A stretch of DNA of 53,849 nucleotides from Acidobacteriota bacterium (GTDB taxonomy: Bacteria > Acidobacteriota > Vicinamibacteria > Vicinamibacterales > UBA2999): NCBI GenBank assembly GCA_016210845.1, contig JACQTK010000026.1, positions 1 through 53,849 on the forward strand. Reading direction: 5' to 3'. Made by a program: the position numbers and the translations under genes. Below, one piece after another: positions 41,514 through 47,766 of this stretch. Below the pieces are notes generated by a model, which saw only the letters and a program-made list of their open reading frames with translations, was not told the origin of the DNA and ran no database searches. The first letter of the stretch is position 1; each line of letters begins with the position of its first letter.

Positions 41514-41588
41514 GGGCGCGTGGCTCAGCGGTAGAGCATTCGCTTCACACGCGAGGGGTCGGTGGTTCGATTCCACCCGCGCCCACCA
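41514..41588 (+). tRNA. tRNA-Val (CAC)
   Basis: GGGCGCG...CGCTTCACACGCG anticodon arm...GGTGGTTCGATTCCACC...CGCGCCCACCA. Confidence 0.96.
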
Positions 41589-41621
41589 CCTCCAACTCAT
41601 TGATTCCAAACGAGCGGAATC
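41586..41621. repeat. Repeat copy 1 (CCACCTCCAAC...CGGAATC), abutting tRNA-Val 3' end
   Basis: CCACCTCCAACTCATTGATTCCAAACGAGCGGAATC; other copies at 42731 and 47176. Confidence 0.9.
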
Positions 41622-41769
41622 GGATCCCAGACTGGCAATCGAACCGCTACAAGCATCCGTGACTTCGATCCTGGATCGAACGTTCCAAAACGAATGCTCC
41701 TGAGATCGAATGCCCCTTGAAGATCGGCACCGACGATGCCATCGTCGTCCTACGAAATGACGAAGGGAA

Positions 41770-42087
41770 ATGAGTGACGACTCGCCGGTTCTGCGCAAAG
41801 GCCCGCTGAAGGGAAAGCGTATCGAATTCGCACCCACGGCTGGTATCGAGGCCTTCGAGGAGATCACCGAAGATTTCATGCTCAACATCTTCGGCTTCGA
41901 GCCCGGGCAGTACCTGATTACGGATCTCTCCAGCCTGCATGATTTCGTCGGAGTCGACGACATGGAAGTGGTGGACATGCTCGCGAGAATCAGGGAGGTT
42001 TACGGACTCGATCTCGCCGATCTTCCGAACGCAAATCTGCTAGAAATCGTCCGCAGGTTGGATGGACACCGGGCCGATCAACGGTGA
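41770..42087 (+). CDS. Small conserved-looking protein X1
   Basis: Close paralogue at 42901 (shared VLRKGP.KG, EFA.T.GIE.F.EI.ED.MLNIFG.EP..YLITDLSSLHDF.GVDDM). Confidence 0.8.
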   Translation: MSDDSPVLRKGPLKGKRIEFAPTAGIEAFEEITEDFMLNIFGFEPGQYLITDLSSLHDFVGVDDMEVVDMLARIREVYGLDLADLPNANLLEIVRRLDGHRADQR

Positions 42088-42437
42088 TCGCCACGGAAAC
42101 GACGAAGACCGGTGAGGTGTTCGTGCGGTTCTCCGCCTTCCAGAACGACAACCGCATCCGAGAGGACGGAAGCCTTCGACCTGGGACCTACGCAACGACC
42201 GAGGAGGATGCGAGGAACGTCAAAACCGGAAGGGATGCGGTCGCCCGGTATGCCCTGTCGAATCCGCAGCCAGCGTCCTACCGCTTCACAATCAGGCCGG
42301 AGATAGATACGGTTATTCAGAAGGGGATCGTCCAACCGGCGTTCGAGCAGCCTGGCGGTGGCGTGGAAGTGATCTTCAAGGATGGAGCGGCGCCGAACAC
42401 GGTGACGTTGCCGCCTGATAAGATTCCGGACGAGTGA
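42084..42437 (+). CDS. Candidate small toxin (resembles C-terminal domains of polymorphic toxins)
   Basis: GTGA overlap with X1; LRPGTYATTEEDARNVKTGRDAVARYALSNPQPASYRFTIRPEIDTVIQKGIVQPAFEQPGGGVEVIFKDG. Confidence 0.5.
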   Translation: MIATETTKTGEVFVRFSAFQNDNRIREDGSLRPGTYATTEEDARNVKTGRDAVARYALSNPQPASYRFTIRPEIDTVIQKGIVQPAFEQPGGGVEVIFKDGAAPNTVTLPPDKIPDE

Positions 42438-42440
42438 GAA

Positions 42441-42644
42441 ATGAGAATCAAGCTTGATCGATGCTGGACTGAGCGACTGCTCGACTTGCCCGAGTCCGGA
42501 ATGGGCTATCAACGGGTCGACGTTCGACTGGCCGATGGTCGGGTCTTGCGCGACGTCGTCGTGTTCAACGCTGAGGAATTGGAAGTTCCTGACGAAGTCG
42601 GGCCGGCCACTATCGCTGATGTCAGTCTACATGCGGCCTCGTAG
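42441..42644 (+). CDS. Candidate immunity protein
   Basis: 3-nt gap after previous stop; MRIKLDRCWTERLLDLPESGMGYQRVDVRLADGRVLRDVVVFNAEELEVPDEV. Confidence 0.5.
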   Translation: MRIKLDRCWTERLLDLPESGMGYQRVDVRLADGRVLRDVVVFNAEELEVPDEVGPATIADVSLHAAS

Positions 42645-42698
42645 CCTCTCAGGCCGCACACCTGAGCTGGTCGAGTGTCTTCAGCCAGGCAGCAAGGC

Positions 42699-42766
42699 GG
42701 TTCCAACTGGCGCCAGTTAGCTGATATGGACCACCTCCAACCTGTTGATTCCAAACGACCGGAATC
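42699..42766. repeat. Composite repeat A (palindrome plus repeat copy 2)
   Basis: GGTTCCAACTGGCGCCAGTTAG then, after 10 nt, CCACCTCCAACCTGTTGATTCCAAACGACCGGAATC. Confidence 0.85.
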
Positions 42767-42900
42767 CTGATCCCAAATCGCCAATCGAACCGCGCAGGCT
42801 CCAGTATCGGGCCTACGAGACTGACTCCGAGTCGAACCCGCTGTTGAAGATCGGCGCCGACGATGGCATCGTCGTCCATCGAGGTGGCGGTGACACACGA

Positions 42901-43206
42901 ATGAATGACGATTCCCGAGTACTTCGGAAGGGCCCGTTCAAAGGACGAGTGGAGTTTGCCTCGACCGTCGGGATCGAGTCGTTCCAGGAGATCGCTGAAG
43001 ATGTCATGCTCAATATCTTTGGTTCTGAGCCCTGGGACTATCTCATCACCGACCTGTCGAGTCTTCATGATTTCGCCGGCGTCGACGACATGGCACCCCG
43101 CGATATGCTGGCGAAGATCAGAGACGTCTATGGATTGGATGTCGCGGATCTGGCCAGCGCGAATCTACTCGAGATCTTTCGGAGACTCTATGAGCAGCGA
43201 GCTTGA
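42901..43206 (+). CDS. Small conserved-looking protein X2 (paralogue of X1)
   Basis: MNDDSRVLRKGPFKGRVEFASTVGIESFQEIAEDVMLNIFGSEPWDYLITDLSSLHDFAGVDDM. Confidence 0.75.
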   Translation: MNDDSRVLRKGPFKGRVEFASTVGIESFQEIAEDVMLNIFGSEPWDYLITDLSSLHDFAGVDDMAPRDMLAKIRDVYGLDVADLASANLLEIFRRLYEQRA

Positions 43207-47097: not shown

Positions 47098-47148
47098 CGC
47101 TCTTCAGGGCATACACGCGCTCGATCTGACGGCGCCAGCCGACGAGCT

Positions 47149-47211
47149 GGTTCCCACTGGCGCCAGTTAGGGCCACCACCTCCAACTCATTGATTCCAAA
47201 CGGCCGGAATC
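47149..47211. repeat. Composite repeat B (palindrome plus repeat copy 3)
   Basis: GGTTCCCACTGGCGCCAGTTAG then CCACCTCCAACTCATTGATTCCAAACGGCCGGAATC. Confidence 0.85.
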
Positions 47212-47299
47212 GCCGTCTCGAACTGGACATCGAAACGTTCGATGGGCGGAGCCTCGCGCCGCGGCCGTCGCCGCGTGCGGCGGTAGAATCAACGTTAGA

Positions 47300-47515
47300 G
47301 TGATCAAAACGGTCGGAACTCGCCGGATTGAGGGCGGTGAAATCGGCGCCCTTCAACGCACGATGGCCGCTGTACGCACCACTGGTGCCATCGTTCCTCG
47401 AGGCGTTTACCGGTTCCGCACTTTCGAGGAGGCCGACGCGTGGATGACGCGCACGATGGCCCGTACGCACGCGAGCCTCAAGTCGAGGACCTCGCCCGCA
47501 TCTGCCAAGCGCTGA
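47300..47515 (+). CDS. Small antitoxin-like partner protein
   Basis: GTG start; 'PRGVYRFRTFEEADAWMTRTMARTHA' pattern; overlaps next ORF. Confidence 0.55.
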   Translation: MIKTVGTRRIEGGEIGALQRTMAAVRTTGAIVPRGVYRFRTFEEADAWMTRTMARTHASLKSRTSPASAKR

Positions 47516-47766
47516 ACGACGCCGGCGCGCGCTACGCGGTGGTCAGAATCGCCGACGAGATCGTCGTCGATCTGATGGCTCGAGCTTGTGGAATCGAGTA
47601 TAGGGAGGCAGCACAGGACGCGACCAATTTGACGATCGCTGATGTGGTCATTCCGGTTGCAAGCCTCTCAACACTGATCCGCACGAAGGACACCATCCGT
47701 CCGTCAGACGCCGCTGACCGTCGCTACTTGGAAGAGCTGCTGGAGGCCGAACGCAGGCAACTGTGA
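47440..47766 (+). pseudogene. Nucleotidyltransferase-like protein lacking the catalytic segment
   Basis: VEDLARICQALNDAGARYAVVRIADEIVVDLMARACGIEYREAAQDATNLTIADVVIPVASLSTLIRTKDTIRPSDAADRRYLEELLEAERRQL; no GS...DxD motif. Confidence 0.6.

What the first reader, a model, noticed from the sequence alone, without database searches (positions are those of the whole stretch)
41770..42644. Candidate free-standing toxin-immunity operon preceded by protein X1
Three tightly coupled ORFs: X1 (GTGA overlap), a 117-aa protein with 'GTYATTEEDA...GRDAVARYAL.NPQPA.YRFTI...QPGGGVEVIF' that recalls C-terminal domains of polymorphic toxins (memory-based, unsearched), and a 67-aa acidic protein 3 nt downstream. 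No delivery domain is attached, so it may be an intracellular TA-like or orphan effector system, with X1 as third component.
Basis: inference. Interest (0 to 1): 0.7.

Follow-up and report, generated by a model that had tools for sequence, protein, structure and literature searches.

The report
Stand-alone TNT-like toxin-immunity gene pair

Summary
The three coupled ORFs are real and at the stated coordinates. ORF2 (42084-42437) is a TNT/Tne2-type ADP-ribosyltransferase-fold (ART) domain. Its Pfam TNT hit is below cut-off (E 0.0014), but 13 of 18 relatives hit the same family, and the model of a 54%-identical homologue finds Tne2, AfNADase and TNT as its ten best PDB matches. The TNT active-site layout is kept (R15, Y36, R55), but TNT's catalytic Gln is an invariant Glu (E95).

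ORF3 (42441-42644) is an uncatalogued ~60-aa 'GMGY' domain. In about 15 relatives a GMGY domain is fused ahead of the ART domain. In nine loci, window included, a stand-alone GMGY gene follows the ART gene at -23 to +3 nt; one of these follows an Rhs protein with an ART-like C-terminus, the usual place of an immunity gene. ORF2-ORF3 is best read as a free-standing toxin-immunity cassette.

X1 is a weakly ACP-like helical protein, duplicated at 42901-43206 under purifying selection; no relative lies beside an ART gene, so a third-component role is unsupported. Toxicity, NAD chemistry and neutralisation are inferred. Lone GMGY domains in phage contigs, two fused to virion-head proteins, leave other roles open.

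The parts
41514..41588 (+). tRNA-Val(CAC), left edge of a low-GC stretch of about 6 kb (possible island)
   Evidence: ARAGORN; GC 59-64% at 41-48 kb against 66-72% in most of the rest of the window
41770..42087 (+). X1, 105 aa, helical, weakly ACP-like, no Ser at the prosthetic-group position; neighbour, not shown to be part of the system
42084..42437 (+). ORF2, 117 aa, TNT/Tne2-type ART-fold domain, predicted NAD-consuming toxin
   Evidence: Pfam TNT below cut-off (14 of 19 members of A4 incl. the window); alignment A4; Foldseek of 54%-identical homologue; hhalign to canonical TNT of L037
42126..42128 (+). ORF2 Arg15, invariant, matches AfNADase R129 (RF motif)
   Evidence: residue roles from PMC7955114; motif alignment by eye
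42189..42191 (+). ORF2 Tyr36 (GTY), matches AfNADase F137
   Evidence: PMC7955114; motif alignment by eye
42246..42248 (+). ORF2 Arg55 (RYAL), invariant, matches AfNADase R148 / TNT R780
   Evidence: PMC7955114; motif alignment by eye
42366..42368 (+). ORF2 Glu95, invariant Glu where TNT-type NADases carry catalytic Gln (AfNADase Q194)
   Evidence: PMC7955114
42441..42644 (+). ORF3, 67 aa, stand-alone (S-type) GMGY domain, predicted immunity protein / antitoxin
42901..43206 (+). X1b, second copy of X1 (74% identical), without an ART gene behind it
41585..41647 (+). boundary direct repeat, copy 1, begins in the last bases of tRNA-Val
42730..42792 (+). boundary direct repeat, copy 2; copies 1 and 2 bracket the X1-ORF2-ORF3 cassette
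47175..47237 (+). boundary direct repeat, copy 3

Best explanation
ORF2 and ORF3 form a free-standing toxin-immunity (toxin-antitoxin-like) cassette. ORF2 is a bare TNT/Tne2-type ART-fold domain that binds NAD+ with R15, Y36 and R55 and cleaves the nicotinamide bond with E95, depleting NAD(P)+ or transferring ADP-ribose to a target. ORF3, translated from the same message 3 nt downstream, binds ORF2 and blocks it. No delivery part is present, so it acts inside the producing cell or is an orphan cassette left from, or available to, a polymorphic toxin. X1 is an independent neighbour in the same array. SHOWN (by comparison): fold family of ORF2, kept active-site layout with Gln-to-Glu change, conserved partnership and gene order with ORF3. 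INFERRED: enzymatic activity, toxicity, neutralisation by ORF3, intracellular action. My confidences: TNT-like ART fold 0.93; ORF3 is its functional partner 0.85; ORF3 is its inhibitor 0.65.
For: ORF2: Pfam TNT E 0.0014, 14 of 19 family members hit TNT, best 1e-4; AF2 model of fused homologue L016 (pLDDT 83.5, most of the ART part 87-98), ten best PDB matches all TNT-type NADases, first Tne2 6b12_A prob 1.00, TM 0.64 on the target; hhalign of the family to the Rhs-borne canonical TNT of L037, E 1.1e-6. Invariant R15, R55, Q89, GGGV, E95. ORF3: homologous GMGY domain fused N-terminally to the ART domain in about 15 loci; stand-alone copy directly behind the ART gene in 9 loci, spacing -23 to +3 nt; no further GMGY copies in 21 genomes with the ART gene, and in surveys of 297 Acidobacteriota, 195 and 279 genomes of two other phyla every GMGY hit was at an ART locus. 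In L061 the stand-alone GMGY gene begins 2 nt behind an Rhs protein whose C-terminus aligns with ORF2 9-98 (hhalign E 4.9e-6, prob 86%). Stand-alone and fused GMGY domains split on the tree (87/94), ORF3 with the stand-alone ones. Purifying selection on both genes in relatives. No Rhs or VipB hit in the genome.
Against: No experiment. ORF2 fails the Pfam TNT cut-off. E95 departs from the TNT catalytic Gln, so the chemistry may differ. Window ORF2 carries two odd residues in nearly invariant columns (RYALS for RYALP, FEQ for FGQ). Lone GMGY genes or fusions without an ART gene in the fetched stretch occur in phage contigs (L062, L063, L065, L076-L078, L081), two next to the portal gene, so GMGY is not exclusively an ART partner. 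An inhibitor-like domain fused to the toxin itself in most relatives is unusual. The genome is a draft, 93% complete.
Confidence: 0.6

Rival explanations
1. GMGY is not an inhibitor but a scaffold, targeting or sensing domain: the fused and stand-alone copies pair with each other to assemble or position the ART enzyme, and ORF3 replaces in trans the domain that ORF2 has lost.
For: GMGY is fused to the ART domain in most relatives; it is also fused to phage head proteins and occurs alone in phages.
Against: Stand-alone copies form their own group on the tree, keep the downstream immunity-gene position, and one follows an Rhs-ART that has no N-terminal GMGY. In L036 an intact stand-alone copy follows a truncated ART gene, as orphan immunity genes do.
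Confidence: 0.2
2. A three-gene system with X1 as regulator or third component.
For: 4-nt GTGA overlap of X1 and ORF2; X1 under purifying selection.
Against: X1 relatives are found only away from ART/GMGY genes, mostly as the C-terminal part of 170-230 aa proteins; X1b has no ART partner; no ART locus elsewhere has X1.
Confidence: 0.08
3. Decayed remnant: a toxin cassette that lost its delivery or N-terminal part and activity, kept for ORF3 as orphan immunity.
For: ORF2 lacks the N-terminal GMGY of its relatives; odd residues S59 and E88; orphan immunity genes against TNT-like NADases are documented (PMC10539506); L036 shows a truncated toxin with intact GMGY.
Against: ORF2 is an intact frame with all active-site residues and correct spacing to ORF3; the N-terminal GMGY is outside the ART domain.
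Confidence: 0.1

Closest known systems
TNT family (Pfam PF14021, Ntox40) NAD+ glycohydrolases: CpnT TNT, AfNADase
   Same: ART-type palm fold by Foldseek, order of R-F, GT[FY], R-x(1,2)-LP and Q-x-G-x-G-x-[Q/E] motifs, 14 of 19 members hit the Pfam model
   Different: below the Pfam cut-off; catalytic Gln replaced by invariant Glu; no CpnT/Rhs/WXG-type delivery part; partner is not a recognised TNT immunity family
Tne2-Tni2 (T6SS NADase effector and immunity; PDB 6b12)
   Same: best PDB match of the model; small toxin domain with its own immunity gene
   Different: no PAAR/T6SS part; Tni2 has at least 153 residues (Arg153 is its C-terminal residue, PMC10539506) against 67 for ORF3, no sequence match
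Stand-alone toxin cassettes with immunity genes of polymorphic toxin systems (PMC3482391)
   Same: toxin domain alone, small acidic gene directly downstream, a relative attached to an Rhs protein
   Different: no full-length polymorphic toxin nearby or Rhs hit in the genome; most relatives carry a GMGY domain inside the toxin
NAD-targeting or ADP-ribosylating toxin-antitoxin systems (RES-Xre, DarTG)
   Same: intracellular ART-fold or NAD-degrading toxin with adjacent partner (works like)
   Different: no sequence link found; ORF3 has no Xre/HTH or macrodomain Pfam hit

Membership tests
TNT NADase (PF14021) | score above Pfam gathering cut-off | tested here: not met
   19.4 bits against 27
TNT NADase (PF14021) | TNT palm / ART fold | tested here: met
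   on a 54%-identical homologue, not on ORF2 itself: ten best PDB hits are TNT-type NADases
TNT NADase (PF14021) | Arg, aromatic and second Arg of the active site (R129, F137, R148 in AfNADase) | tested here: met
   R15, Y36, R55; residue roles from PMC7955114; match by motif, not by structural superposition
TNT NADase (PF14021) | catalytic Gln (Q194 AfNADase) | tested here: not met
   Glu95 in ORF2 and in every aligned relative; Gln in canonical TNTs of L040, L037, L068, L070, L072
TNT NADase (PF14021) | NAD(P)+ hydrolysis | not testable with these tools
   needs enzyme assay
Polymorphic toxin | N-terminal delivery/trafficking part | tested here: not met
   ORF2 is the domain alone; no Rhs or VipB hit in the genome
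Polymorphic toxin | immunity gene directly downstream of the toxin | tested here: met
   position only: 9 loci, -23 to +3 nt, one behind an Rhs-ART; inhibition itself not tested
Known TNT immunity families (IFT/Imm63, Tni2) | sequence membership of ORF3 | tested here: not met
   no Pfam family at E<=1 for ORF3 and only DUF498 at 0.11 for one of 11 GMGY members; no credible PDB sequence match
Type II toxin-antitoxin system | toxic when expressed, neutralised by the partner | not testable with these tools
   needs expression test in a laboratory strain
Acyl carrier protein (X1) | DSL serine for phosphopantetheine | tested here: not met
   Asp (VDDM) aligns with DSL; ACP matches are weak anyway (Pfam E 0.1, Foldseek E 0.098, hmmsearch E 0.099)

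The most novel reading that the evidence does not exclude
ORF2-ORF3 is a new intracellular anti-phage ART system in which a Glu-type TNT enzyme is held by a GMGY antitoxin (fused in most relatives, separate here), and phages carry stand-alone GMGY domains, some fused to head proteins behind the portal gene and so possibly packaged and injected, as counter-defence.
Probability: 0.15. Interest if true: 0.8.

Novelty: new variant of a known kind. Interest (0 to 1): 0.55.

Why it matters
It adds an uncatalogued branch of the TNT/ART toxins in which the position that makes TNT a pure NAD glycohydrolase (Gln) is Glu, as in ADP-ribosyltransferases and cyclases; this makes the Gln/Glu switch testable on a small natural protein. 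It also names a new partner domain (GMGY), absent from Pfam, that recurs inside the toxin, as a separate downstream gene, and in phage genomes, which gives a concrete lead on how such toxins are controlled and perhaps countered.

Tried and rejected
PADLOC: no hit for any of the proteins. NCBIfam: no credible hit. PHROGs: no hit for X1 or ORF3, weak unknown families for ORF2. Phage and plasmid collections: no ORF2 match in phages, one Rhizobium plasmid protein; no ORF3 match in either; no X1 match in plasmids. PDB sequence searches: nothing credible for ORF2; the 7pvp_A match of GMGY is a designed repeat protein with summed 2.7-bit pieces. BFVD Foldseek: no significant match. Promoter/terminator consensus scan: none. 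Considered and rejected: MuF/head-packaged toxin for the window (no phage genes seen beside it); RES-type toxin (different motif order); X1 as a working ACP (no Ser); the insertion-broken second copy in G005 (L006) was not read as intact.

Full report
Observation. The genome holds one copy of ORF2 and two of X1.

What ORF2 is. Its only notable Pfam hit is TNT, PF14021, E 0.0014, 19.4 bits against a cut-off of 27. One scan of genome contigs with a four-row family alignment gave 23 loci in at least six phyla. In these the ORF2-like domain is usually the C-terminal half of a 200-250 aa protein. Fourteen of 19 aligned members, window included, hit TNT, best 1e-4. The AlphaFold2 model of the L016 fused homologue, whose ART part is 54% identical to ORF2, has mean pLDDT 83.5, and its ten best PDB matches are all TNT-type NADases: Tne2 in complex with Tni2 (6b12_A, prob 1.00, TM 0.64 on the target), the Aspergillus and Neurospora NADases, and TNT 4qlp. 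No match reached E 0.001, so the case rests on consistency of the matches, not on one score. ORF2 itself was not modelled.

Active site. In AfNADase R129, F137 and Q194 are needed for activity, and R148 contacts nicotinamide (PMC7955114). By motif the counterparts in ORF2 are R15 (VRF), Y36 (GTY), R55 (RYAL) and position 95 (GGGVE). Position 95 is Glu in every aligned family member, whereas the canonical TNT domains fetched here, L040, L037, L068, L070 and L072, carry Gln; hhalign puts the family's GGGVE on GGGIQ of the L037 Rhs-borne TNT. That paper states that ARTs and ADP-ribosyl cyclases carry an acidic residue at this place and that Gln explains the lack of cyclase and base-exchange activity. 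The family is therefore predicted to cleave NAD with a Glu, possibly with transferase or cyclase chemistry; this step is inference.

What ORF3 is. ORF3 is the founding member here of a ~60-aa domain, called GMGY after its PE-SGMGYQ core; no Pfam, NCBIfam or PADLOC family fits. A GMGY domain is fused ahead of the ART domain in about 15 of the loci. In L015-L019, L036 and the viral contig L064 a further stand-alone GMGY gene follows the ART gene; with the window and L061 this makes nine loci with spacings from -23 to +3 nt (in L019 both genes look frameshifted, in L036 the ART gene is truncated, and in L015 the 5' end lies off the contig). In 21 genomes that carry the ART gene, all 19 GMGY matches lie at the ART locus. 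In surveys of 297, 195 and 279 genomes of three phyla GMGY turned up only at ART loci. Stand-alone and fused GMGY domains fall on two sides of one branch (87/94), ORF3 with the stand-alone ones; many branches of that short-protein tree are weak.

Why immunity. The strongest single case is L061 of a Verrucomicrobiota-related genome: the stand-alone GMGY gene starts 2 nt behind an Rhs protein whose C-terminus aligns with ORF2 residues 9-98, keeping Arg, GTF and Glu in order (hhalign prob 86%, E 4.9e-6). A small acidic gene directly behind a toxin domain is the standard place of an immunity gene in polymorphic toxin systems (PMC3482391), and TNT-like NADases have small unrelated immunity proteins and orphan immunity genes (PMC10539506). 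Against it stand GMGY domains in phage contigs with no ART gene in the fetched stretch: stand-alone in L065, L076, L077 and L078, fused to larger proteins in L062, L063 and L081, the last two directly behind a portal gene. For other NAD/ADP-ribose enzymes such head fusions were read as packaging and injection (PMC9503650); an injected or early antitoxin would fit counter-defence, but this is speculation.

X1. X1a and X1b are 74% identical with 17/11/60 differences at codon positions 1/2/3, so both have been kept under purifying selection. The X1 model (pLDDT 83) is all-helical, and its best PDB matches are acyl carrier proteins at insignificant E-values; sequence searches point the same weak way. 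The attachment Ser is Asp. Relatives exist only as the C-terminal part of longer proteins in another Acidobacteriota family and none lies by an ART or GMGY gene. The overlap with ORF2 shows possible translational coupling in this genome and nothing more.

Setting. The cassette X1-ORF2-ORF3 is bracketed by two copies of a direct repeat (41585-41647, 42730-42792), of which the first begins in the last bases of tRNA-Val; a third copy is at 47175-47237 with a small two-gene cassette behind it. GC content drops to 59-64% between 41 and 48 kb against 66-72% in most of the rest. This looks like an island or cassette array at the tRNA gene; no integrase was identified, and the whole genome could not be examined for further copies.

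Verdict. A real, previously unnamed toxin-immunity-like pair; a new variant of the TNT/ART toxin kind, with X1 as bystander. The enzyme reaction, toxicity and neutralisation remain to be shown.

Noticed in passing
window 41585-41647, 42730-42792, 47175-47237 (and 42684-42720 / 47134-47170): Three copies of a direct repeat, the first starting at the tRNA-Val 3' end; two are preceded by a second repeat holding the palindrome ACTGGCGCCAGT. They separate small gene cassettes.
   Followed up: partly
window 47300-47515 and 47440-47766: Behind the third repeat copy lies another pair of small overlapping ORFs (71 and 108 aa) that recalls an AbiEii/nucleotidyltransferase-type toxin-antitoxin pair from memory; no Pfam hit.
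   Followed up: partly
window 42901-43206: Second copy of X1 without an ART gene, 17/11/60 differences by codon position to the first copy.
   Followed up: yes
L063 3840-4721 and L081 3986-5914: Viral contigs in which a GMGY domain is the N-terminus of a protein directly behind the portal gene; in L063 the rest is an HK97-type head maturation protease.
   Followed up: partly
L066 4974-5609, L064 2862-3566: Fused GMGY-ART genes on phage-like contigs; in L066 just upstream of terminase-like genes.
   Followed up: partly
L004 and L005 (976-1773 and 970-1773): Acidobacteriota proteins that appear secreted, with a C-terminal TNT-like PAFDQPGGGIEFWL motif (also Glu), in two related genomes of the same genus.
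   Followed up: no
L036 3963-4559 (- strand): A zeta-toxin-like P-loop gene (Pfam Zeta_toxin E 5e-7) lies close to the truncated ART and intact GMGY genes of a betaproteobacterial contig.
   Followed up: no
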